From positions 1-34,360 of the IMG/VR virus record IMGVR_UViG_3300037833_000021: a DNA stretch of 34,360 nucleotides, one strand, 5' to 3'. Made by a program: the position numbers and the translations under genes. Positions within the stretch are counted from its first letter, which is position 1. Every line of letters begins with the position of its first letter. This DNA is from a virus. The notes under the pieces were generated by a model. That model ran no database searches. It worked only from the letters and a program-made list of their open reading frames with translations, and was not told the DNA's origin. Positions 3,098-34,360 of this stretch are shown here, piece after piece.

Positions 3098-3325
3098 ATG
3101 GACACCACCACTGACATCGAGATCGCAGGCAAGTCAACGGCCCGTCAGCGTTGGGCCATCTACAGGCTGTTCAGCCACGACGTGGCGAAGCACCTTACCG
3201 AGTCCGAGGCCAGCACCGTCATTGGCCTGCTGTTGAAGGCGAGGGGCAGGCTGGAGGAACAACGCCAGCGTGGCGTTAGGGGCGACGGTGTAACCACCGG
3301 ATCGAAACGTGACGCCATTTTATAA
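3098..3325 (+). CDS. Small hypothetical protein whose 3' end overlaps a hairpin repeat
   Basis: The protein has 75 aa, with AAGGAA 5 nt or so before the ATG. Residues ~15-48 (ARQRWAIYRLF, then LTESEASTVIGLL) resemble the short Thr/Glu-rich helical motif found in many phage and bacterial proteins in which a 'TEKQ' segment is followed by 'LTKxEAS', a possible protein-protein or DNA-binding hook. The last ~20 residues are read through the 20-bp repeat at 3260-3279 and look non-homologous (QRQRGVRGDGV), as if the original C-terminus had been replaced when the repeat arrived. The stop codon overlaps the TATAAT box that could serve the next gene. Confidence 0.5.
   Translation: MDTTTDIEIAGKSTARQRWAIYRLFSHDVAKHLTESEASTVIGLLLKARGRLEEQRQRGVRGDGVTTGSKRDAIL
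3260..3300 (+). repeat. Hairpin direct repeat, copy 1 (left of the membrane-protein gene)
   Basis: The 20-bp core at 3260-3279 is identical to 4288-4307. It is itself an inverted repeat (AACGCCA, loop GCG or similar, TGGCGTT). Weaker similarity continues for ~17 bp: both copies have CGA, then GGTGTA, then CACC, which here forms a second hairpin (CGGTG, TAAC, CACCG). Confidence 0.8.
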
Positions 3326-3326
3326 T
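3321..3326 (+). promoter_or_regulatory. Consensus -10 box for the membrane-protein gene
   Basis: A perfect TATAAT lies just inside the left repeat copy and 53 nt before the preferred start codon at 3379. The hexamer about 17 bp upstream is a poor -35. Transcription from here would skip the ATGs at 3325 and probably give a ~45-nt leader. Confidence 0.4.
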
Positions 3327-3378
3327 GACGTTCGTACATTGTTCGGTTACGATGGACGCCAAGGAAGGACACGAACCC

Positions 3379-4287
3379 ATGGCCGAATCGACCGAACCGG
3401 AACCCGTCAACAAGGTAACTCTGCCGAGCGATCCCGAGTTCCAAAAGCTGAAACAGCAGACAGCCGCCGAGCGGGCCAAAGACCGCCGCTATACGAGGTG
3501 GGGGTTTTGGATCAGCATGGTTTTCGGCGTCGTCGGTTTGATCTACGGCTACCTTGGGTACGAAGCGTCGAAGCAGTACCCGGCCCTGACGTACGCTGTC
3601 CACCCGATCAAGACTGAGCTTCAGCGACCGGACTTCGACGACCAGTTCAAATTCTTCCACCGGGGCAAACCGGTCGAGTCCAACACCGTCACCGCAGTGC
3701 AAGTGGCGATTTGGAACGAAGGGACGAAAAGCATTCGGGCGACAGACATGCTTGAGCGAGCGGTGCTGACTATGCCGCCGGGCGTCCGCATACTGAGCGC
3801 CAAGATAAAGACCGCAAGCCGTGACGTTTGCAGGTTCCGCCTCCATGACGATAGCGAGGGCGACATGGCCCAAGGGATCTTGGGGCTTTCGTGGCACGTC
3901 CTAGAGCCGAATGACGGTGCTGTGGTGCAGTTGATCTACGCTGGTGCGGCGGACCAGCAGCCAAGGCTTAAGGGCGTTGTCGAAGGGCAACGAGCCGTCA
4001 TAGAAATTCCGTACCAGAAGCCGGAACGCGCCTCCAGCGCTGTCCGCACCAACGACTGGACAGTGGGACTCCTACGAGGATTTTTGCCGCTCATAACCGG
4101 AGTGTTTGTGGGGCTTGGCACAATCCATTTGATGAATCAATGGGATCACGTACGGCGAAAACGATTTGGTGGGCGCTTTGGCCTGACCTCTATGGTCTTT
4201 ATCCCCACCGTGATCCTCATCCTGTACGTGATGATATACAAATGGACGCTCGATGCAGGAACATCCCGCACCCCGTTCGGCTGGTAG
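3379..4287 (+). CDS. Three-helix membrane protein with a large extramembrane domain (cargo)
   Basis: The protein has 302 aa from ATG 3379, which has AAGGAAGGA about 9 nt upstream; in-frame ATGs at 3325 and 3352 lack a ribosome-binding site and overlap the likely promoter. One transmembrane helix (~41-60) follows a charged N-terminus. Then comes a ~165-residue soluble domain with a beta-rich pattern (alternating hydrophobic residues, motif VAIWNEGTKS), which recalls immunoglobulin-like sensor domains between membrane helices. Two further helices lie at ~229-252 and ~268-288, with a basic loop between them (HVRRKRF). No enzyme motif is seen. The gene and its own promoter sit exactly between two copies of a 20-bp hairpin repeat, which suggests it was gained as a unit. 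A surface or superinfection-exclusion role is a guess from topology and position. Confidence 0.7.
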   Translation: MAESTEPEPVNKVTLPSDPEFQKLKQQTAAERAKDRRYTRWGFWISMVFGVVGLIYGYLGYEASKQYPALTYAVHPIKTELQRPDFDDQFKFFHRGKPVESNTVTAVQVAIWNEGTKSIRATDMLERAVLTMPPGVRILSAKIKTASRDVCRFRLHDDSEGDMAQGILGLSWHVLEPNDGAVVQLIYAGAADQQPRLKGVVEGQRAVIEIPYQKPERASSAVRTNDWTVGLLRGFLPLITGVFVGLGTIHLMNQWDHVRRKRFGGRFGLTSMVFIPTVILILYVMIYKWTLDAGTSRTPFGW

Positions 4288-4346
4288 CAACGCCAGCGTG
4301 GCGTTAGAGCCGAGGTGTACACCCTTGAACAGTGAAGGGGTACACC
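4288..4346 (+). repeat. Hairpin direct repeat, copy 2, plus a long adjoining hairpin
   Basis: Bases 4288-4307 repeat 3260-3279 exactly and begin directly after the stop codon of the membrane-protein gene. They are followed by a 12-bp stem with one bulged A: GGTGTAC (4314-4320) and CCCTT (4322-4326) pair with AAGGG (4335-4339) and GTACACC (4340-4346). There is no T-tract, so it is not a standard terminator. Confidence 0.8.
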
Positions 4347-4429: not shown

Positions 4430-4566
4430 GCGAATGAAGATCAGTTTCGTGGTTTCCGATTGGGAAGAAGCGAAAAAACCGATAATAGAAGTGCAACGTG
4501 ATTCATTCATTCGCCCGCCCTTGGCACCGCAAATGCCAAGGGCATTTTTTTTGGAGCGAATGAATG
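4430..4566 (+). promoter_or_regulatory. Attenuator-like leader with one arm that can pair either way
   Basis: The middle arm CATTCATTCGC (4504-4514) is perfectly complementary over 11 bp to GCGAATGAATG (4556-4566), which contains the start codon of the next gene. It is also complementary over 9 bp to an upstream copy, GCGAATGAA (4430-4438). Between the middle and right arms sits a strong terminator (4518-4552). The downstream pairing would hide the ribosome-binding site region and the ATG at 4564; the upstream pairing would free them. The complementarity is read directly; switching is inferred. Confidence 0.5.
4518..4552 (+). terminator. Strong intrinsic terminator just before the 4564 gene
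   Basis: CCCTTGGCA (4518-4526), a 7-nt loop and TGCCAAGGG (4534-4542) form a perfect 9-bp stem followed by CA and eight T. It lies only 12 nt before the start codon of the gene at 4564, so it either closes the upstream unit or attenuates that gene. Confidence 0.85.
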
Positions 4567-5442
4567 GAGACACAGACCCACGAGGGAGCAGAGGAGTTAG
4601 AGCTAACGGCAGATCAGTTCGAACGGTTTCAGGCCGCCCGTAACGGCGTCGTTGCCGAGTTCGTCAGACGGATGCACAAGCTGGCCGAGCGTGATGCACT
4701 AGACCCCACCGAGGTAAACCACAAGCTGCTGATGGACGTTTGGCGTAGGGGCGAGGAAATCTATTCAGGCGCAGCCGCCAACGTGTGTTACTGGCAAGCG
4801 TGTAAGCAGTTCAAAGCCGAGCATCCAGACGACGGCGAGCAGGACCCGCCGGCAGAGGCCACAGCCGCACCACAGACCCCACCGCCACCACTTCCCACTT
4901 TCGGACCTGATCTTGTGCCGGTGGAGCAATCCGAGCGGCGAGCCGCAGCCATGCGAGCGCCCGAGGACGAACTTGCGACCATCCAGAAATGGCTACCAGC
5001 GTTAGAGGCATACGTCCGGTCACGACTGACCGACGCCAACCTTGTGAATGACAACGCCTATCTGGTGAAGCACAAGGAGCGGAAGATCACGCTGCGGACG
5101 GTGGCGGCATTCCTTGGCCTACACCGGTTGAACGTCATACAGCGAAAAGGGGACTCGCCCAAAGACCGGTTCATCGGCCTGACGGCACAGCCGTTGCCGC
5201 AGGTCAAAGACCTGTTCGGCGGCAAGATTGAACCTAAGCACTTCACACGCCTAATGGCAATCCTCGTGAAAGACCTGAACGTCACCACGATCACGAGGGA
5301 GCCGAACCACTTCAAACGAGAATGCACCAGCTACGCACTTCACTTGCCGGCAGCGTTGGACGCCTACCTTGACGGCGTCGAGACCGTTTCCCCCCCCCCC
5401 ATGTTAAAGATAAAGACCAATGTGAATGATAAAGAAAAATGA
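4564..5442 (+). CDS. Hypothetical protein with a C11 tract near its 3' end
   Basis: The protein has 292 aa. GGAG lies 7 nt before the ATG. Residues 1-80 are helical and acidic, ~95-120 are a Pro/Ala-rich linker, and ~130-270 form a basic mixed domain. In that domain ITLRTVAAFLGLHRLNVI (residues ~177-194) reads like a helix-turn-helix, so DNA binding is possible. No family is recognised. Eleven consecutive C residues (5390-5400) encode Pro277-Pro279 and are followed by a 13-residue, Lys/Asn-rich, AT-rich tail unlike the rest of the gene. Loss of one C would end the protein at 280 residues; gain of one C would end it at 289 with a different tail. The leader carries a terminator and alternative stems, so expression may be conditional. 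Confidence 0.65.
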   Translation: METQTHEGAEELELTADQFERFQAARNGVVAEFVRRMHKLAERDALDPTEVNHKLLMDVWRRGEEIYSGAAANVCYWQACKQFKAEHPDDGEQDPPAEATAAPQTPPPPLPTFGPDLVPVEQSERRAAAMRAPEDELATIQKWLPALEAYVRSRLTDANLVNDNAYLVKHKERKITLRTVAAFLGLHRLNVIQRKGDSPKDRFIGLTAQPLPQVKDLFGGKIEPKHFTRLMAILVKDLNVTTITREPNHFKRECTSYALHLPAALDAYLDGVETVSPPPMLKIKTNVNDKEK

Positions 5443-12653: not shown

Positions 12654-14405
12654 CTAATCCGTCGCCAACAGTGTTCTGGCTACCGTCACGTACGTGTACA
12701 GACGGACGGTAATGCTATCGATTCTGCCTACCCACTCTACGACGCTCTGAAGATCGCCGCTCTTGACCTCGGCCGACGCAATCTCACCATAAGCCCATTC
12801 CGAAAACGTTGCTACGTTAGCCGCGCTGCGACGAGCCCGCGAGAAGTCGCCTGCTTCAAGTTGCTTCTGGGATAGCAGTTGCCAAGGCAACGATCGTTGT
12901 TCCCACGGCATACGGCGAATGAACCTCGTGGCTTGGGTCATCGCTTCTTCAGCGTGGGAGTTCTTCCTTCCCAATATCGCCACGCAGACCGAGAACGCAC
13001 TGTCCAGATCGTCAAGTGATTCCGCCATCTTCAGGGCGTCCCTATCTCCCATGGTACTGGCGATGCTATGAAACGCCTGCGCTCTCTGTCCAAGCGAGCC
13101 AATAGATGCCCATGGCGTATCCGGCGACCGATCGGTCGGCAGTCGTTCTGCTTTCGCACGAGCACCAGCACCATCGCCTCCTAGTCCCTGCACGGCCACG
13201 AGCAGTGCCGTCTCGGTCTTGCCCACAGGACCCGCCTCGTTAACCAACCGTCTCGTTAGCTCTGAATCGCCCGAACGAGCGGCATACTCTGCTAGCTTCA
13301 AGAACGCCCAAGATCGGCTTTCCTCGGGTACGAGTTCTAGTAGTTGCACCGCCGCCTCTTTGTCCCCCCTGGCATACTGCGCCTCCGCTATTGTCTTGAT
13401 CGCCGATACTTTGAAGCTGCCCGAGTCCACGGCGATCCGCCTGGCGTTAGCGAAATCTCCTGCCTTTGCCAATCTGGTCGCCTCTCCGGCTGCGGCTTCC
13501 TCGTAATAGATTTGGTCAATCAGCTTATACTCTCTTGCAGCATTTTCGGCGTCGCGGAACTGAAGCTGCATACTCTTCAAGCCTTTCCATAGGCCGAAGG
13601 CCATACCCTCCTGTGCCCACTTGCGCTTGTCGAGAGGAGTCCCGGCCCATAACTTCGCCAGTTGCTTCCAGTCGCCATCGAGTGCGAGTCGTGCGGCACT
13701 GCTCCGAATCCGGCCGGCCGCAAGCAAGCTCTCCCAATCCGACTCCTGTCCTTCCTCTTCAGCGTCGAGCAAAGCTCTGCGAATTTTCCTACGTTCCCAG
13801 ACGAATCGTGCCGAGGCTTCGTCAGCCCGTTCGAGAAACAGAAAAATGATGCGTGTGAGGCGGGAGTCGAGTGCATTAAGGAGTTCCAGTGAAAGGTCTT
13901 CAGGGTTGACCGGCAACTCGTCGGCCCTCCGCAGCCACCACATGGGGTGGTTAACAGTGAATTGGGTAGTAGAGGGAGAAGGCGGTGACGGCGCTAGCGG
14001 GACATCTTGGCGATCAGGTGTCGGCTGACTTCCGGTTGATAAGTGCTGCGCAATCTGCGCACCACTCAGCCATCTGACCAGCCCTGGGAAGAGGAAGCCG
14101 GACAGCAACATGAAGTACACCACGACAAAGACGACCACGGCCTTCACGAGCCAGTCGTAGAACTGCGCCTCAGCCTTCCCTACCTCCCTGATCGCTCGCT
14201 GGATTATGAGCAAGAGGACGACGGCGAACGTCATGCCCAAGAAGGCAAGGACGGCGATTCGTTTATCCGTGTACAGGCCGTAGATGGTCGCCGCAGCACT
14301 GGAAACCGACATCACGCCAGCGACCGCCTTGGCCAGCGTCCGTGACGGCGGCGGCGGATTGGTGGACTCGCCCGAGCGTGCGGGTGTTCTTTGCGTTCGC
14401 GGCAT
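12654..14405 (-). CDS. Membrane protein with helical-repeat (TPR-like) tail; reverse-strand cargo gene
   Basis: The protein has 583 aa. Three hydrophobic helices lie at about 23-45, 49-71 and 84-110, followed by a Pro/Ser linker. From ~165 to the end it is all-helical, with repeated short helix pairs such as AGDFANARRIA, YARGDKEAAVQLLELV and AARSGDSELTRRLV, the pattern of TPR-like solenoids that bind other proteins. No catalytic motif is evident. It is the only gene on the minus strand between 1 and 29973 and splits the fibre cluster from the terminase. Its third-codon positions are visibly more mixed than those of its neighbours. It appears to have its own promoter. This is typical of a gene expressed in the lysogen, independent of the late operon. 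Membrane anchoring plus a partner-binding solenoid suits a defence, exclusion or envelope role, but that is inference. Confidence 0.75.
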   Translation of the reverse strand: MPRTQRTPARSGESTNPPPPSRTLAKAVAGVMSVSSAAATIYGLYTDKRIAVLAFLGMTFAVVLLLIIQRAIREVGKAEAQFYDWLVKAVVVFVVVYFMLLSGFLFPGLVRWLSGAQIAQHLSTGSQPTPDRQDVPLAPSPPSPSTTQFTVNHPMWWLRRADELPVNPEDLSLELLNALDSRLTRIIFLFLERADEASARFVWERRKIRRALLDAEEEGQESDWESLLAAGRIRSSAARLALDGDWKQLAKLWAGTPLDKRKWAQEGMAFGLWKGLKSMQLQFRDAENAAREYKLIDQIYYEEAAAGEATRLAKAGDFANARRIAVDSGSFKVSAIKTIAEAQYARGDKEAAVQLLELVPEESRSWAFLKLAEYAARSGDSELTRRLVNEAGPVGKTETALLVAVQGLGGDGAGARAKAERLPTDRSPDTPWASIGSLGQRAQAFHSIASTMGDRDALKMAESLDDLDSAFSVCVAILGRKNSHAEEAMTQATRFIRRMPWEQRSLPWQLLSQKQLEAGDFSRARRSAANVATFSEWAYGEIASAEVKSGDLQSVVEWVGRIDSITVRLYTYVTVARTLLATD

Positions 14406-14411
14406 AACCGG

Positions 14412-14440
14412 AGTCTACCGGGCGGTGGAATAGCGTCCAA
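14412..14440 (-). promoter_or_regulatory. Possible promoter of the reverse-strand membrane gene
   Basis: Read on the minus strand, TTGGAC (14440-14435) and TAGACT (14417-14412) are 17 bp apart, and the second is only 6 nt from the ATG at 14405. No ribosome-binding site is present, so the message may be leaderless. Confidence 0.35.
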
Positions 14441-14486
14441 GAAAAATGGCAAAGGAGGCGGACAGGGCAGCGCTGAACTGATCTGC

Positions 14487-16532
14487 ATGGCGCAGAGCTA
14501 CCGACAACGAAGCAACCAAATCAACGAGATCCAGAAGCAGCGGTCTCAGTTGGGCAGAGACGTCGCGCCCTTGCCGAAGGCGTCGAATCCGGAGCGGCGA
14601 GAGTCCTGCCGCCGGGACTTTCGTCGGTTCTGCGAAACCTACTTCCGCAACGTGTTCTGCCTCGAATGGTCGGCGGATCACCTGCGGGTCATCCAGCTAA
14701 TTGAGGACGCCACGCTCAAGGGCGGGCTGTTCGCCGTCGCCATGCCCCGAGGCAGCGGCAAAACCTCGCTCGCCATCTGCGCCGCAGAGTGGGCGCTGCT
14801 CTACGGCCACCGTTCGTTCGTCGTCCTGATCGGTGCCAGCGAGGACGCAGCGTGCGACCTGCTGGACCACGTCAAGGCCGACTTCGAGAGCAACCCGCTG
14901 CTGGCCGAGGACTTCCCCGAGGTCTGCCACCCGATTTCGAAGCTGGAAGGGATCACGCTCCGTGCGGCCGGACAGCTTCTCGACGGCGAGCGCACCATGA
15001 TCGGCTGGACGGCCAAGGAGTTGGTCTTGCCGACGGTGAAGGGGTCTGTTTCGTCCGGTGCCCGGGTCAAGGTCGCAGGCATTACCGGCCGCATTCGTGG
15101 CATGAGTGCGAAGCGTCAGAGTGACGGCGCAACGATCCGCCCGGACTTCGTCCTGATCGACGATCCGCAGACCGACGAGTCGGCACGCTCGGCCAAGCAG
15201 GTGGGCGACAGGCTAAACATGGTCAACGGTGCCATTCTCGGCTTGGCCGGACCCGGAAAGACCATCGCAGGCGTCATGCCGGTCACGGTGATTGCCAGGG
15301 GGGACATGGCCGATCAGGTCTTGAACCGCAAGACGCACCCGGAGTGGCAGGGCGAGCGGATCAAGCTGCTGAAGTCCGAGCCGACGAACCTGAAGCTGTG
15401 GGAGCAGTACGCCGAGCACCGGGCGAACGGCATGCGTGAGGGGCGGGACCTGGCCGACGCCACGGCGTTCTATCTGGCCAACCGTGACGCCATGGACGCC
15501 GGTGCCGAAGCCTCGTGGCCGGCACGGTACAACAAGAACGAGGCCAGCGCCGTCCAACACGCCGTCAACCTGAAGCTGCGGGACCCGGCGAGCTTCGCAG
15601 CCGAGTACCAGAACGAGCCGATCACGGCCGACGCCATGGCGCTGCTGAACGTCACGCCGGATCTCGTGGCGTCCAAGGTGCTACCCAACCTCGCCCGTGG
15701 CGTCGTCCAAAAGGACGCCGTCAAACTCACGGCGTTCATCGACGTGCAAGGCAAGTGCCTGTTCTACGGCGTCTGCGGGTGGGATAAGAACTTCGGCGGT
15801 CACGTGGTGGATTACGGCGTCTACCCGGAGCAGGCGAAGTCCTACTTCACGATCAACAGTCTGGACAAGACGTTCGCCGACCTGAAGGAACTCAGGGGCG
15901 TGCAGTCCGAGGGGCAGCTATACGCCGCCCTAAAAGCACTGACCACGTCACTGCTGTCACGGCGGTGGCAGACCGAGACGGACCGCGACAAGACGATTGA
16001 CCGCCTCGTGATCGACTCGGGGTACGGGAGCGACGTGGTCAAACAGTTCGTCCGGGAGTCGGCGTATACCGCACTCATCCTGCCGTCAAAGGGGTTCGGC
16101 ATCAGCGCCGAGAAGAAGCCGTTCAACGAATACCGAGAAGAACCCGGCGTCAGGACCGGATGGAACTGGCGGCACAAGGTTGCCGCCCGTGAGTTGCAGT
16201 ACGACACGAACGGCTGGAAGTCGTTCCTGGCCGAGCGGCTGCTGACGGCACCGGGCGTGCAAGGCAACCTGACGCTGTTCAAGGGCAACCCGACGCAACA
16301 CCGGCTGATCTCCGAGCACGTCAGCGCCGAGTACCCGGTCGCCATCGAGGACAAGGCGTCGGGCCGGGTCGTCAACGAGTGGAAGCTGAGGCCCAACCGT
16401 GAGAACCACTGGCTGGACTGCCTCGTGGGGTGTGCCGTGGCGGCGAGCGAACAGGGCATCCTGTTTCTCGGCCACCAGAAGGCCACCGGACAGATCAACC
16501 GAAAGCGAAAGAAACTAAACGTTACCTACTAA
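14487..16532 (+). CDS. Terminase large subunit
   Basis: The protein (681 aa from ATG 14487) is the ATP-driven DNA-packaging motor and nuclease that cuts the concatemer and fills the prohead. The Walker A motif is PRGSGKTS (residues ~87-94) and Walker B is VLIDDP (~222-227). The C-terminal RNase-H-like nuclease has conserved acidic residues in FIDVQG, LVIDSGYGSD and WLDCLV. The start is uncertain: the frame is open from TTG 14391, an AAAGGAGG lies at 14452-14459 but too far from 14487, and the upstream part would overlap the divergent gene. No recognisable small terminase gene precedes it, which is unusual. It is the first gene of the head operon. Confidence 0.93.
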   Translation: MAQSYRQRSNQINEIQKQRSQLGRDVAPLPKASNPERRESCRRDFRRFCETYFRNVFCLEWSADHLRVIQLIEDATLKGGLFAVAMPRGSGKTSLAICAAEWALLYGHRSFVVLIGASEDAACDLLDHVKADFESNPLLAEDFPEVCHPISKLEGITLRAAGQLLDGERTMIGWTAKELVLPTVKGSVSSGARVKVAGITGRIRGMSAKRQSDGATIRPDFVLIDDPQTDESARSAKQVGDRLNMVNGAILGLAGPGKTIAGVMPVTVIARGDMADQVLNRKTHPEWQGERIKLLKSEPTNLKLWEQYAEHRANGMREGRDLADATAFYLANRDAMDAGAEASWPARYNKNEASAVQHAVNLKLRDPASFAAEYQNEPITADAMALLNVTPDLVASKVLPNLARGVVQKDAVKLTAFIDVQGKCLFYGVCGWDKNFGGHVVDYGVYPEQAKSYFTINSLDKTFADLKELRGVQSEGQLYAALKALTTSLLSRRWQTETDRDKTIDRLVIDSGYGSDVVKQFVRESAYTALILPSKGFGISAEKKPFNEYREEPGVRTGWNWRHKVAARELQYDTNGWKSFLAERLLTAPGVQGNLTLFKGNPTQHRLISEHVSAEYPVAIEDKASGRVVNEWKLRPNRENHWLDCLVGCAVAASEQGILFLGHQKATGQINRKRKKLNVTY

Positions 16533-30079: not shown

Positions 30080-30385
30080 CTATCTATCGGTGCTGGTGTG
30101 AAGCCTCTCCCACACCGCAAAGAGGATGAGCATCGAGGCGTTGTCGCCCCACCGCTCCTCTGGCGGCAGGGTCGATAGAAGTGCCTCGTTTTCGCCCCAA
30201 AGTCCGTACCTGTTCCGTATCCCAAGCCCCCAACTGTGGTGGAACTGGATCATGTCTTCCTTCGGCAATCCTCGAATCGACGCCCTGTCGTCTTCCGACA
30301 GACCGGCAACCAGCCGATCAACGGCCTCAGGTACCGTCTTCGGCATGTCATCCGCAGGCTTACGGTGTTTTCGTCCCAAACTCAT
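30080..30385 (-). CDS. DUF6794-like small protein
   Basis: The protein has 101 aa, with AAGGAGG about 6 nt before the ATG. The block PKTVPEAVDRLVAGLSEDDR (residues ~15-34) followed by a segment with GLGIRNRYGLWGENEALL (~53-70) and an ASMLILFAVWERL end matches the uncharacterised DUF6794 family of short cytoplasmic proteins. No catalytic residues are known for it. These proteins are scattered widely in bacteria, often alone between unrelated genes, which suits cassette-like spread. Its leader contains the repeat shared by its two neighbours, followed by an extra 20 nt with a second ribosome-binding site. Confidence 0.7.
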   Translation of the reverse strand: MSLGRKHRKPADDMPKTVPEAVDRLVAGLSEDDRASIRGLPKEDMIQFHHSWGLGIRNRYGLWGENEALLSTLPPEERWGDNASMLILFAVWERLHTSTDR

Positions 30386-30404
30386 GGGAACCTCCTTGGC
30401 AAAC

Positions 30405-30446
30405 TGGGATTCTCCGTCCCCGGCACATCTGTTGCAATCATGAGGA
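30405..30446 (-). repeat. Cassette-flanking repeat, copy A
   Basis: The first 14 bases of the plus strand (TGGGATTCTCCGTC) are identical to the start of copy C, then CGGC, GTTG and CAT-AG-AT occur at the same spacing as in B and C. It forms the leader of the DUF6794-like gene, 20 nt upstream of its start codon. Confidence 0.6.
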
Positions 30447-30478
30447 TATACGCACCGCCGACCGCTAACACATGGCGG

Positions 30479-30859
30479 TCAGTCCGGCATGTCGATTATG
30501 TTGCGGTATCGCTGCCGTACCTTCGCAAGTACACGCTCGTCTTCGGCCTCGACATCGTACGCCGAACTGTCTACGGCTCGGACGACGATCTTCGGGGCAG
30601 CGTCCCCATCAATGCAGCCCGCGAAGATGCCATCGATGATCTGGTAAACGCTCTCGGCCAAGGCCCGTAACGCTGACGTGTCGACGATAGCTTGCGCATC
30701 CGAGAGGCGGTGCAACTCATCTGCTCCGTCCCCCAAACACTCAACGCCCGAGATTCTCCATCGAAGCCCTTCAGCATCCGTTCCCAACGTGTCCAGTACG
30801 TCTGCGAGCGAGACCGCCAAGACGCCGTTCGTTTTGTCCATGATGCTGACGCATTTCAT
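30479..30859 (-). CDS. Hypothetical protein, cassette gene 2
   Basis: The protein has 126 aa from ATG 30859; GGGGAG lies ~11 nt upstream, while the GTG at 30871 would overlap that site. A beta-strand N-terminus (VSLADVLDTL, RWRISGVECLGD) is followed by helices (ALRALAESVYQIIDGIFAG) and a terminal strand block with KIVVRAVDSSAYDVEAEDE and VLAKVRQRY. I recognise this order from small uncharacterised bacterial proteins in which 'WLVIRAxDSSxxEV' is conserved, but it has no known function. A hairpin (GACCGC 30460-30465, GCGGTC 30475-30480) overlaps its stop and may end its transcript. Confidence 0.6.
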   Translation of the reverse strand: MKCVSIMDKTNGVLAVSLADVLDTLGTDAEGLRWRISGVECLGDGADELHRLSDAQAIVDTSALRALAESVYQIIDGIFAGCIDGDAAPKIVVRAVDSSAYDVEAEDERVLAKVRQRYRNIIDMPD

Positions 30860-30862
30860 GGC

Positions 30863-30923
30863 CGTTCGCACTCCCCGGCTAAACTGTTGACACCATCAGC
30901 ATTGTGTGCGGCTTGGACAGAGG
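30863..30923 (-). repeat. Cassette-flanking repeat, copy B
   Basis: This copy shares CCCCGGCTAAAC-GTTGACA with copy C (CCACGGCTAAAC-GTTGACA), and the CGTTCGC, CATCAGCA and TGTGTGC blocks with copy D. Similarity to C continues outward (GTGT then CTTGG-CA). It forms the leader of cassette gene 2 and ends close to the stop codon of cassette gene 3. Confidence 0.6.
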
Positions 30924-30926
30924 AAA

Positions 30927-31205
30927 TCAGGTTGGCGGTGTTCCAGCGATGCTGTCATCGTAAAGCTTCGTCAGGTTCGGCCATGCCCATCGCCCGTCGT
31001 ACCACAGCAGCGACCGCCTCAGCTTGTCTTGATCGCAGCGTTCCCAATCGTTCAGCGAGTGCGGGATATTGTGAACGGCACTCATCAAGTCCTTCAGTTG
31101 ATCCTTCTCGAAATTACCGGTTCCGGCCATCGCACGAGCGTTGATTATCGCTTCATGCAAGACTTCGAGGCAGGCTGTGCGAAAGGGTTCAGGTGCAATA
31201 GTCAT
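30927..31205 (-). CDS. Hypothetical protein, cassette gene 3
   Basis: The protein has 92 aa, with GGACGGAG 6-7 nt before the ATG. It is all-helical: PFRTACLEVLHEAIINARAM, then KDQLKDLMSAVHNIPHSL and WYDGRWAWPNLTKLYDD. The HNIP element followed by a W-D-YD-containing end recalls short proteins of unknown role found beside toxin or immunity genes, but the likeness is weak. It is the first gene of the minus-strand trio. Its leader can fold so that ATGGG near the repeat pairs with CCCAT at the start codon, which would reduce translation. Confidence 0.6.
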   Translation of the reverse strand: MTIAPEPFRTACLEVLHEAIINARAMAGTGNFEKDQLKDLMSAVHNIPHSLNDWERCDQDKLRRSLLWYDGRWAWPNLTKLYDDSIAGTPPT

Positions 31206-31263
31206 GGGATTCTCCGTCCACGGCTAAACCGTTGACAACCCATCAGGATTCGGCAGGTGTCTT
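31205..31263 (-). repeat. Cassette-flanking repeat, copy C
   Basis: This is the rightmost copy, directly in front of the start codon of cassette gene 3. It shares its first 14 bases with A and its centre with B, and contains GTTGACAAC, a small palindrome. From here to 31353 (about 90 bp) I see no gene. Confidence 0.6.
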
Positions 31264-31353
31264 GGGCATGGCCGCATTGTACCAGTCCGCAGTCGGACAC
31301 GACCTGCTGATTTCTCCGCAAGTTGTCGAGAAGACTTGTGGAGGAAAATGAGG

Positions 31354-31866
31354 ATGCCACTACAAAACGACTACGAAGTGAGGGGGGCCGACGCCCTCCT
31401 GACGATCCACGCCCGCAACGGCAGGCGGTTCCAGTACACAATCGATGCGGAGGACTTGCCCAAGGTGCGGCGGCACCAGTGGCACACGTCCACGAGCGCC
31501 CACACCGACGACAACGTGTACGCCAAGACCGGCAGCGGGACGCAGGGGAAGTTCCTCCAGCGCCTCGTGGCCGACACGCCGCCCGACCTGATCTGCTGTC
31601 TCAAGGACACGGATCAGACCAACTGCCGCAAGAGCAACTTGTTGAACGGCACCCGGTGGGAGATCAGCCAGCACACGAGGGCGAGGCGCAAGGGCATCGT
31701 CCCGCAGAGCGGCTACGTCGGGGTCGTGTGGAACGAGAAGATGCGGCAGTGGAGGGCGGGACCGCCCAAGGACACGAACACGTTTCTGGGCTACTACAAG
31801 ACCGTCCGGGAGGCGTTGGCGGCGCAGGCGGAACACGAGGCCGGGCGGAAGGGGGGCAAGCAATGA
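31354..31866 (+). CDS. HNH/AP2-type DNA-binding protein with a degenerate nuclease site
   Basis: The protein has 170 aa from ATG 31354, which has GGAGG 9 nt upstream (the ATG at 31348 is too close). The N-terminal half follows the phage HNH-AP2 homing-endonuclease layout (IDAEDLPKVRRHQW, FLQRLV, then D-T-D and NCRKSNL). The C-terminal half is an AP2 DNA-binding domain: GYVGVVWNEKMRQWRAG, LGYYKTVREALAAQAE. In the usual active site V-D-H the residues are C81-C82-L83, so the catalytic His is absent, and the usual His of LHRL is Gln69; D85, D87, N90 and the RKSNL end remain. It may bind DNA without cutting. The stop overlaps the start of the next gene (ATGA). Confidence 0.78.
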   Translation: MPLQNDYEVRGADALLTIHARNGRRFQYTIDAEDLPKVRRHQWHTSTSAHTDDNVYAKTGSGTQGKFLQRLVADTPPDLICCLKDTDQTNCRKSNLLNGTRWEISQHTRARRKGIVPQSGYVGVVWNEKMRQWRAGPPKDTNTFLGYYKTVREALAAQAEHEAGRKGGKQ

Positions 31867-32021
31867 GCGACGACAAGAAGCGGCGGCGGCAGGAGTACAT
31901 GAGGCAGTGGCGAGAGAAGAACGCAGACCACATCAAAGCCTACTGGCATGAGTGGTACAAGGCGAACCGTGATGAGGTCATCGCACGTCGGCGGAAGCGG
32001 GCGATGGAGGGCGACGCCTAA
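31863..32021 (+). CDS. Very small basic protein coupled to the AP2 protein
   Basis: The protein has 52 aa, starting in a 4-nt overlap with the AP2-type gene. It is highly charged and probably one continuous helix or two: DKKRRRQEYMRQWREKN, then HIKAYWHEWYKANRDE and a basic end. Aromatic residues at regular spacing resemble short phage proteins built from repeated 'REYxxxWRxxN' units found beside HNH genes. Translational coupling suggests a shared function in nucleic-acid binding. Confidence 0.6.
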   Translation: MSDDKKRRRQEYMRQWREKNADHIKAYWHEWYKANRDEVIARRRKRAMEGDA

Positions 32022-32027
32022 GACGGC

Positions 32028-32909
32028 TTACAGGCCATCGCCCGCCGTCGGGTCGGATTGTCGCCTCCTAACCGGTGCGGCGTCGGGTTGAGGTCGTTGC
32101 AGTCGCCGCTTCCGGGGCCTGTGTTCCACAGCAGGTAAGCCACTGAGGTACATGTTGATGTCCTTCGACAGCGACCGGATCAGTTCGACCTGTGTCGCTG
32201 CCCGTTCCGCCTTCGGCAATCCCTCCGATATCTTCAACGCCAGCGCAACGTTCTGCGTGATCACCAGCTTTTGGTGGTACTCCCCCATCTTCAAAACCGT
32301 CCTGTTGTACAGATAGAAGAACACCGCCGAAATCAGTTCACACAGGACTCCAACGGCCGTGATAACGGCGCTCCGGGTCGAAACTTCTCGGTACAACATC
32401 CAAACGCCTGCTACCACGATGAGAAGTGCGGCGAATGCGGCGACGGCGCTGAAAACGAAGCTTTTGTTGGCCTGCCGCTGCGTCTGTTTGTAATACTGTT
32501 CGATGTAAGTGAAGTTGATTCCAACCAGACGGTCGAAGAAGCTCTGTGCTTTCGCCTCTGCTTCTTCGTCCGGTTTACGATCTGAAGATGACGTTGCCGT
32601 TGACCCGGCACTGTTCCCAGTGCTGACCGCTTTACCTCCGGCAACTACAACCGAAGGATCAATGGCCCGTCCAGCAATGTCACTGATTAATTGTTCCCGA
32701 TAACGTGCTGCGCGGTCGTCGGTTGTACGGAACGTGCTGATAGTAAAATAGGCTACTATCAAGGCGAAAAACCCACTGATGAGCATTCCCCACACGTCCG
32801 AACGCCCATTCCAATAGTAGTAAATAGTCGCAACGAAGGAACTGAAAACCATCGCTGCGTTCAGCCCGGCAAGCACTTTGAGGGCCAAGATTACCCTATT
32901 TCTATCCAT
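32028..32909 (-). CDS. Four-helix membrane protein related to the TRADD-N-associated TM family (conflict-system type)
   Basis: The protein has 293 aa from ATG 32909, preferred over a start 78 bp upstream that would overlap the integrase gene. Two membrane helices lie near 8-33 and 40-58. A Ser/Thr linker follows, then the block FFDRLVGINFTYIEQYYKQT (~124-143), a third helix (~150-172), a fourth (~180-200) running into FFYLYNRTVLKM, then EYHQKLVITQNVALALKI and a helical end. That order matches the two-helix domain known as TRADD-N-associated TM, described in predicted bacterial conflict systems coupled to NTPase or effector modules. No effector is fused here. The tail is basic and disordered. 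It lies 29 bp after the integrase gene on the same strand, a usual place for lysogen-expressed cargo. Confidence 0.68.
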   Translation of the reverse strand: MDRNRVILALKVLAGLNAAMVFSSFVATIYYYWNGRSDVWGMLISGFFALIVAYFTISTFRTTDDRAARYREQLISDIAGRAIDPSVVVAGGKAVSTGNSAGSTATSSSDRKPDEEAEAKAQSFFDRLVGINFTYIEQYYKQTQRQANKSFVFSAVAAFAALLIVVAGVWMLYREVSTRSAVITAVGVLCELISAVFFYLYNRTVLKMGEYHQKLVITQNVALALKISEGLPKAERAATQVELIRSLSKDINMYLSGLPAVEHRPRKRRLQRPQPDAAPVRRRQSDPTAGDGL

Positions 32910-32938
32910 GAAGGTTAGGATACCAGAAATCGGACGCC

Positions 32939-34360
32939 TTAACGTTTGGCAAGCTTGCCGAAGTAGGCCCGTTCGATGGCTTCGCACACCGGTGCCACCA
33001 TCTTGGGGTTGCGGGCGACGTAGTGGTCAGACTCGCCGGGCAGCCGGTGCCCGGCCACGATTTGGCACAGGCTGAATTCCGCACCCGAGGCACAGGCGGC
33101 CGTATAGGCACCGTCACGGATGTGGTTGTATTCGATTAACGCAGGCACCTTTGCGGCCGTCCGCAGCTTGCCGAACACCTTGCGGAAGCTGTTGGGGTGA
33201 TACCTGTCGCCACGGGCCGACTTGAACACCGCACCCGGTGTGACCTTCAGCGCCTTGAGCGCCTTCACCGTCCGAGGCCAGAGGACGGCCGCACGAATGA
33301 CCGACGTTTTGCCACGGCGAGTCACGAACGTGCCTGCGTTCAAGTCCAGTTCGTCCCAATCCACGGCCAGCACTTCCGACACATACAGACAGGCGTTCAT
33401 CGACAGCAGCAGCGCCGCCCTTTGCAGGTCATCCGCCACGTCGATCAGCTTGGCGAAGTGGTCACGGCTGATGGGCGTTGGGCTGTATTCCTGTTTTCGC
33501 TTGGGGGCCACGAGGACGGCGCACCGGTCCAGAGCCGAGCGGACTTCCACGGGGTCCAGACCGTGGGACAGGCCGAACCGGATCACGCCCTTGACCCGTT
33601 GGAAATACGCCGACACGGTCGCGGCACCGCCAAGGCGTTTCTTGATTGCGTCCCGGTAGGCCGTCAGCTTTTCAGTGGTCAGGTCCCGCAGCGTCTTTGC
33701 GCCCGTCAGCTTCACGAATTCGCCCCACGTCCCGTCCACCTTGTTTTTCGTCACAGGCTTCACGTCGGCGTGGGTCTGGTACAGGTCGGCGAGCCGAGAC
33801 AGGCGGACGGACTCACGAGGGAGGGCCATGGTGGCGAGCGAAGCGAGTTGCGGGATGGCCACCTTTTCGGCCACCACTTCCGGCCGTTCGAGAAGCTGGA
33901 CCCGCAGCCACGGCCAGATGATTTCTTCCGGCACGTCGATGCCGATCACCGGCACCCGTTTGACCTGTACCTTTTGCGGCTGCGGCGGGCCGTCGTCGTC
34001 GTCGGCTTCCACCTTGATACCGAGGTCGGCCAGGTCTTTGACGAGGTCGGCAGACATCCTGTTGTTGTTGGGCATCCGGGCGGGCATCGTCATCGACGCC
34101 GAGCCGGTCATCAGGACGGGCATGGTGCTTTCGTAGTCCTGTGACGGCAGCGCCATCGTGACGACCTTGCGGCCGTCTGCCTGTTGCCACTGCCGGAAGC
34201 GGGCGACGGCGACACGCTCGTCATGTTCGGTGAAGTGCTGACCGGTGGCGTTGATCCGCCAGCGGCCGTCAGGCTTGCGGTAAAGTCCGTCGATGTTCTC
34301 GCCCCACGAGGCACGGTAAGGGCGGGACGGGCGGCCACGTTTCTTGCCGGTGTGAACCAT
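32939..34360 (-). CDS. Tyrosine recombinase (integrase), diverged catalytic box
   Basis: The protein has 473 aa and its ATG is the last codon of the window. It should integrate and excise the phage by strand exchange at att sites. The N-terminus (KKRGRPSRPYR) looks like an arm-binding module, residues ~170-290 match a SAM-like core-binding domain (DVKPVTKNKVDGTWGEFVKL), and the catalytic domain follows. In it Lys351 (RRGKT), Arg415 (HIRDG), His438 (AGHR) and the nucleophile Tyr447 (DHYV) are present. The box I Arg, normally in L-R-x-S-E, is Tyr326 (LYVSEV), and the usual H-x-x-R reads N-H-I-R. I believe similar departures occur in planctomycete integrases, so activity is not excluded. No att site can be placed because the left junction is absent. 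Confidence 0.88.
   Translation of the reverse strand: MVHTGKKRGRPSRPYRASWGENIDGLYRKPDGRWRINATGQHFTEHDERVAVARFRQWQQADGRKVVTMALPSQDYESTMPVLMTGSASMTMPARMPNNNRMSADLVKDLADLGIKVEADDDDGPPQPQKVQVKRVPVIGIDVPEEIIWPWLRVQLLERPEVVAEKVAIPQLASLATMALPRESVRLSRLADLYQTHADVKPVTKNKVDGTWGEFVKLTGAKTLRDLTTEKLTAYRDAIKKRLGGAATVSAYFQRVKGVIRFGLSHGLDPVEVRSALDRCAVLVAPKRKQEYSPTPISRDHFAKLIDVADDLQRAALLLSMNACLYVSEVLAVDWDELDLNAGTFVTRRGKTSVIRAAVLWPRTVKALKALKVTPGAVFKSARGDRYHPNSFRKVFGKLRTAAKVPALIEYNHIRDGAYTAACASGAEFSLCQIVAGHRLPGESDHYVARNPKMVAPVCEAIERAYFGKLAKR

What the first reader, a model, noticed from the sequence alone, without database searches (positions are those of the whole stretch)
12654..14405. Reverse-strand membrane/helical-repeat gene dividing the late operon
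It is the only minus-strand gene in 30 kb, has its own candidate promoter, codon use that looks less GC-biased, three membrane helices and a long TPR-like solenoid. This placement between fibre genes and terminase is typical for genes expressed by the lysogen. The architecture is not one I recognise from described defence systems.
Basis: partly seen in the sequence, partly recalled or inferred. Interest (0 to 1): 0.6.

Follow-up and report, generated by a model that had tools for sequence, protein, structure and literature searches.

The report
Reverse-strand membrane cargo gene in prophage
A temperate phage of planctomycete-like bacteria carries, backwards between its tail-fibre and DNA-packaging genes, a recently acquired gene for a membrane-anchored helical-repeat protein; it looks like ordinary prophage cargo, perhaps altering the host cell envelope or blocking rival phages, but its function is untested.

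Summary
The ORF is real: 12654-14405 (-), 583 aa, with no long ORF opposite. It is the only well-supported minus-strand gene in the first 30 kb; a minus-strand block follows at 30080-34360. GC3 (0.647) and codon adaptation (0.437) fall below all 13 late genes used as reference. Two transmembrane helices are clear, one is weak; residues ~286-581 model as an alpha-solenoid. The claimed promoter is not supported. No full-length relative was found. The solenoid alone, with its C-terminal cap, has a relative in a planctomycete-group genome (56 bits; best of 200 shuffles 26.6). In related phages a reverse gene upstream of terminase is common: 57 of 93 loci with >3 kb upstream carry a HARE-HTH gene there, and all 86 HARE-HTH hits lie opposite to terminase. 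The window lacks it. Best reading: an acquired moron-type accessory gene, probably a membrane-tethered solenoid expressed by the lysogen. Superinfection exclusion is the likeliest specific function, but is inferred. New member of a known kind.

The parts
12654..14405 (-). target gene, 583 aa: membrane anchor, low-confidence middle, alpha-solenoid
   Evidence: ORF; codon usage and shuffle test; model
14079..14340 (-). codons of aa ~22-109: one weak and two strong hydrophobic helices
   Evidence: hydropathy; helices in models
12660..13550 (-). codons of aa ~286-581: TPR-like alpha-solenoid with C-terminal cap shared with L192
   Evidence: model; alignment; sub-threshold TPR_19
14406..14486 (.). 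81-bp gap between the divergent starts of the target and terminase (terminase start taken as the ATG at 14487)
   Evidence: sequence; no promoter above chance

Best explanation
A horizontally acquired accessory ('moron'-type) gene of a temperate tailed phage whose relatives sit mostly in Planctomycetota genomes. It encodes a protein anchored in the cytoplasmic membrane by two or three N-terminal helices, followed by a low-confidence middle region and a C-terminal TPR-like solenoid. SHOWN: the ORF, its strand and place, its deviating codon usage, the hydrophobic helices, and the similarity of the solenoid to a chromosomal protein of the planctomycete group. INFERRED: it is transcribed in the lysogen independently of the late operon; the solenoid probably faces the periplasm (positive N-terminus with three helices, and chromosomal relatives with N-terminal export-like segments), where it binds a protein partner. 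Most likely specific role (about 0.3): superinfection exclusion at the envelope, hindering receptor use or DNA entry by related phages; otherwise a host-envelope conversion function.
For: Opposite strand between late genes. GC3 and CAI below all 13 reference late genes. Its GC3 deficit to terminase (-0.211) is larger than that of every one of 86 HARE-HTH hits in relatives (minimum -0.184), so the low GC3 marks this gene rather than the reverse slot. Integrase present and no PHROG match for the target. Solenoid and C-terminal cap related to L192. Terminase relatives mostly in Planctomycetota MAGs. PMC7067206 on moron position and on expression in lysogeny (abstract and passages).
Against: No promoter above chance. 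No expression data. No relative with the same membrane anchor was found, so neither conservation nor selection is shown. Topology is ambiguous because helix 1 is weak. Nothing specific points to superinfection exclusion; PADLOC gives no match.
Confidence: 0.5

Rival explanations
1. Neutral or host-serving cargo: a planctomycete membrane-solenoid gene captured by the phage, a scaffold or envelope protein with no role in phage conflict.
For: The solenoid type occurs in chromosomal proteins with N-terminal export-like segments; foreign codon usage.
Against: No chromosomal full-length relative in the genomes sampled; the ORF is intact at 583 codons, which suggests it is kept.
Confidence: 0.22
2. 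Cytoplasmic sensor with membrane effector: the solenoid faces the cytoplasm, senses a phage protein, and the helices depolarise the membrane (abortive infection).
For: Two strong helices with one weak would place the solenoid inside. A second low-GC3 minus-strand membrane gene, 32028-32987, matches PF20712, a domain named for its association with TRADD-N conflict proteins (PMC8195603 passages on TRADD-N systems).
Against: No PADLOC match; no known effector domain; chromosomal relatives of the solenoid look exported.
Confidence: 0.12
3. A regulatory or life-cycle gene that takes over the role of the reverse HARE-HTH gene found upstream of terminase in relatives.
For: Comparable place and same reverse orientation; the window lacks a HARE-HTH hit.
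Against: Membrane protein rather than DNA-binding; foreign codon usage unlike the HARE-HTH genes.
Confidence: 0.08
4. A lytic-cycle or virion protein (lysis, tail, or ejection) that happens to be reversed.
For: Lies among late genes; no lysis cassette was recognised in the window by the searches made.
Against: Opposite strand to the late genes; no PHROG match; viral structure library best E 5.8e-3 with TM-scores of 0.12-0.13.
Confidence: 0.08

Closest known systems
Prophage accessory (moron) loci antisense to lytic genes, e.g. STMMW_20121 of prophage ST64B (PMC7067206, passages read)
   Same: Reverse strand among the lytic genes; no virion match here
   Different: There an own promoter and lysogen expression are shown by RNA-seq; here neither is shown, and the protein is unrelated as far as known
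Planctomycete-group chromosomal KAGD-type helical-repeat proteins (L192, L193, L194, L196)
   Same: Repeat type; in L192 also the C-terminal cap
   Different: They lack the target's two strong membrane helices and middle region; L192 and L193 begin with export-like segments
Reverse-strand HARE-HTH gene upstream of terminase in relatives
   Same: Opposite strand to terminase and a comparable place
   Different: DNA-binding-type domain, no membrane helices noted, codon usage like its phage

Membership tests
Prophage moron / accessory locus | Lies antisense to, or inserted among, lytic genes | tested here: met
Prophage moron / accessory locus | Composition deviates from the phage core genes | tested here: met
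   GC3 and CAI below all 13 reference late genes
Prophage moron / accessory locus | Own promoter | tested here: inconclusive
   no match above chance to a sigma-70 consensus; other promoter types are not covered
Prophage moron / accessory locus | Expressed in the lysogen and dispensable for lytic growth | not testable with these tools
   needs RNA-seq and deletion
TPR repeat family (Pfam TPR clan) | Pfam model above its curated cut-off | tested here: not met
   13.5 bits: 18.2 bits, cut-off 25
TPR repeat family (Pfam TPR clan) | Helical-hairpin solenoid fold | tested here: inconclusive
   single-sequence model; PPR, TPR and other helical repeats are close in Z
Known anti-phage defence proteins (PADLOC) | Match to a PADLOC model | tested here: inconclusive
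   0 families for the target; the library dates from 2023
HARE-HTH gene of the slot upstream of terminase | HARE-HTH domain | tested here: not met
   no hit in the target or elsewhere in the window

The most novel reading that the evidence does not exclude
The gene founds a new kind of envelope-exclusion protein: a membrane-tethered periplasmic TPR-like solenoid built from a planctomycete chromosomal repeat family, carried in a reverse-strand slot upstream of terminase that related phages use for a HARE-HTH gene, and expressed by the lysogen to stop entry of related phages.
Probability: 0.15. Interest if true: 0.5.

Novelty: new member of a known kind. Interest (0 to 1): 0.25.

Why it matters
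To my knowledge (recalled, not searched exhaustively) little is known of how planctomycete prophages alter their hosts. If the gene blocks superinfection it would be a sequence-novel exclusion protein. The wider result, that phages of this group often keep a reverse-strand gene (usually HARE-HTH) upstream of terminase, gives a place to look for accessory and regulatory genes in a poorly studied phage group.

Tried and rejected
Relatives of the target: viral contigs with the whole protein and with three parts, genome contigs, phages, plasmids (one weak Streptomyces TPR match, 29%, E=0.8), 177 terminase-relative loci (none at E 0.1), genome samples (these sets overlap, and in the three larger ones only about 3-4 candidates per genome were scored). 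Most weak genome hits were rejected on reading the ORFs: L179 and L181 are zinc-finger/trypsin-like proteins matched in hydrophobic helices; L180 and L182 look like shadow frames; L183 gave no usable frame; L184 is a short multi-helix ORF; L185 looks coiled-coil; L191 gave no tblastn match on re-test and L195 has interrupting stops. The repeat-profile scan of viral contigs gave no confirmed relative.

A hidden fibre or virion relation was rejected: no PHROG match; BFVD best E 5.8e-3 with TM-scores of 0.12-0.13. The PDB look lists PPR and TPR proteins up to Z 13.2 at rmsd 9.6 over 267 residues, which the tool itself says may be only a common arrangement for helical repeats; no function is drawn from it. 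PDB sequence search gave 3 matches at E 0.93-2.2, two of them designed repeat proteins. The N-terminal half folded alone stays at mean pLDDT 51 and was not searched against structure libraries. Integron-type sites around the gene were considered by eye; nothing convincing.

A rough gene-caller survey upstream of terminase (89 loci) was not used for counts because several of its long minus ORFs look like shadow frames on reading.

Full report
WHAT IS THERE. The window is a 34,360-bp virus record. It carries terminase, portal, head protease, major head protein, tape measure and tail genes on the + strand and an integrase on the minus strand at its right end; no terminal direct repeat shows among the repeats found. 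The finding is an intact 583-codon ATG ORF on the minus strand at 12654-14405, between a 605-aa fibre-like GDSL-domain protein followed by two small ORFs and terminase. Its length is beyond 1000 base shuffles (586 against a maximum of 406 stop-free codons), and the strand opposite it holds no frame longer than 154 codons, so it is not an antisense shadow.

COMPOSITION. GC3 is 0.647 and leave-one-out CAI 0.437; the 13 late genes used as reference span 0.771-0.912 and 0.578-0.760. The other genes with similarly low values are in the minus-strand block at the right end: 32028-32987 (0.614, 0.427) and 30927-31205 (0.641, 0.425); 30479-30871 (0.708, 0.499), 3325-4287 (0.703, 0.470) and 4564-5442 (0.692, 0.506) are intermediate. 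The integrase is phage-like (0.810, 0.643). This fits late acquisition of the target, though low codon adaptation can also reflect low expression.

PROTEIN. Two strong hydrophobic helices (aa ~50-69 and ~85-108) follow a weak one (~23-45) and a positively charged N-terminus. Two single-sequence AlphaFold2 models draw helices at 22-44, 48-74 and ~80-124. Much of aa ~115-297 is low confidence. From ~286 to 581 the model is a run of helical hairpins, mostly pLDDT 65-85. Pfam reports only sub-threshold TPR_19; PHROGs and PADLOC report nothing and NCBIfam nothing usable. If all three helices cross the membrane and the N-terminus is inside, the solenoid is periplasmic; if only two cross, it is cytoplasmic. 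The first is favoured weakly.

RELATIVES. No full-length relative was found in any collection tried. In genome samples around handles of terminase-bearing genomes, matches at the set limits were 0 of 8, 7 of 392, 1 of 296, 4 of 298, 0 of 102 and 1 of 38 (the same locus as); the sets overlap and few candidates per genome were scored in the larger ones. On reading, only solenoid matches survived: L192, L193, L194 and L196. L192 comes from the sample of the class of G006, the genome of locus L066, titled Phycisphaerales. It encodes a 465-aa protein with an N-terminal hydrophobic export-like segment (my reading) and aligns with target aa 309-583 at 30% identity, 56.2 bits, pairwise E 1e-12, through a shared C-terminal cap; 200 shuffles of the target's solenoid reach at most 26.6 bits. 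L193 begins like a lipoprotein (my reading). The solenoid type is therefore found in chromosomal proteins of the planctomycete group, apparently outside the cytoplasm; the membrane anchor is not shared.

THE SLOT. None carries the target. A profile made from four proteins finds HARE-HTH genes in 85 of 177 loci, 86 hits, every one on the strand opposite terminase, 54 of them within 1.5 kb upstream; one hit in L032 and one of two in L102 lie downstream instead. Counting only loci with enough sequence, 57 of 93 have one within 3 kb upstream and 55 of 69 within 7 kb. Pfam confirms PF05066 in 4 of the 4 proteins of this kind that I sent (4 of 86 hits, three of them in the profile). The loci are not independent; some look near-identical. 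The window lacks the gene. HARE-HTH genes have GC3 like their terminase (mean difference +0.024, minimum -0.184, n=86), whereas the target is at -0.211. So a reverse gene dividing the late genes upstream of terminase is ordinary in this group, while this particular occupant is foreign.

MECHANISM. Best reading: accessory cargo expressed by the lysogen, a membrane-tethered solenoid that binds a partner at the envelope. A position antisense to lytic genes is described as characteristic of moron loci, and accessory loci as often highly expressed in lysogeny (PMC7067206; abstract and passages). Superinfection exclusion is the specific role I commit to, at about 0.3; it rests on the general roles of phage membrane cargo (recalled) and on inferred topology, not on a test. 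A text search for superinfection exclusion with tetratricopeptide, prophage and membrane gave 2 papers, neither about such a protein by title or abstract start (listing only).

VERDICT. It is an ordinary kind of thing with an unrecognised sequence: new member of a known kind, interest 0.25.

Noticed in passing
177 loci L002-L178 around terminase relatives: HARE-HTH (PF05066) gene in 85 of 177 loci, always on the strand opposite terminase and mostly a few hundred bases to several kb upstream. A text search for HARE-HTH with phage gave 6 papers, none on phage-encoded HARE-HTH genes beside terminase by title or abstract start (listing only).
   Followed up: partly
window 32028-32987 (-): Second low-GC3 minus-strand membrane protein, PF20712 CyanoTRADDas_TM (E=2.2e-14), overlapping the integrase gene. 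A 51%-identical relative lies in another viral contig, L190 7701-8435, beside a resolvase-like and near an integrase-like ORF (those two names are my reading). 1 of 392 sampled genomes has a match over the Pfam cut-off (L186).
   Followed up: partly
window 30080-31205 (-): Three small minus-strand ORFs, the first a DUF6794 protein (PF20594, E=5.7e-13), each with a copy of a 30-nt repeat at or near its start (30405, 30860, 31205). Looks like a repeated leader of acquired small genes.
   Followed up: no
window 3260-3285 and 4288-4313: A 26-nt hairpin-forming repeat (copies 92% identical) flanks the 320-aa ORF 3325-4287, which has lowered GC3 and two hydrophobic stretches; possible insertion cassette.
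   Followed up: no
L090 5101-5904 (-): An unrelated 267-aa multi-helix membrane ORF sits reversed directly upstream of terminase in an uncultured planctomycete contig (no Pfam match): another membrane gene in a comparable place.
   Followed up: partly
L152 7872-9443 (-): Reverse pair upstream of terminase: a glutamine amidotransferase-like (PF13522) and an Amidoligase_2 (PF12224) protein; L158 6564-8486 has look-alikes by eye.
   Followed up: no
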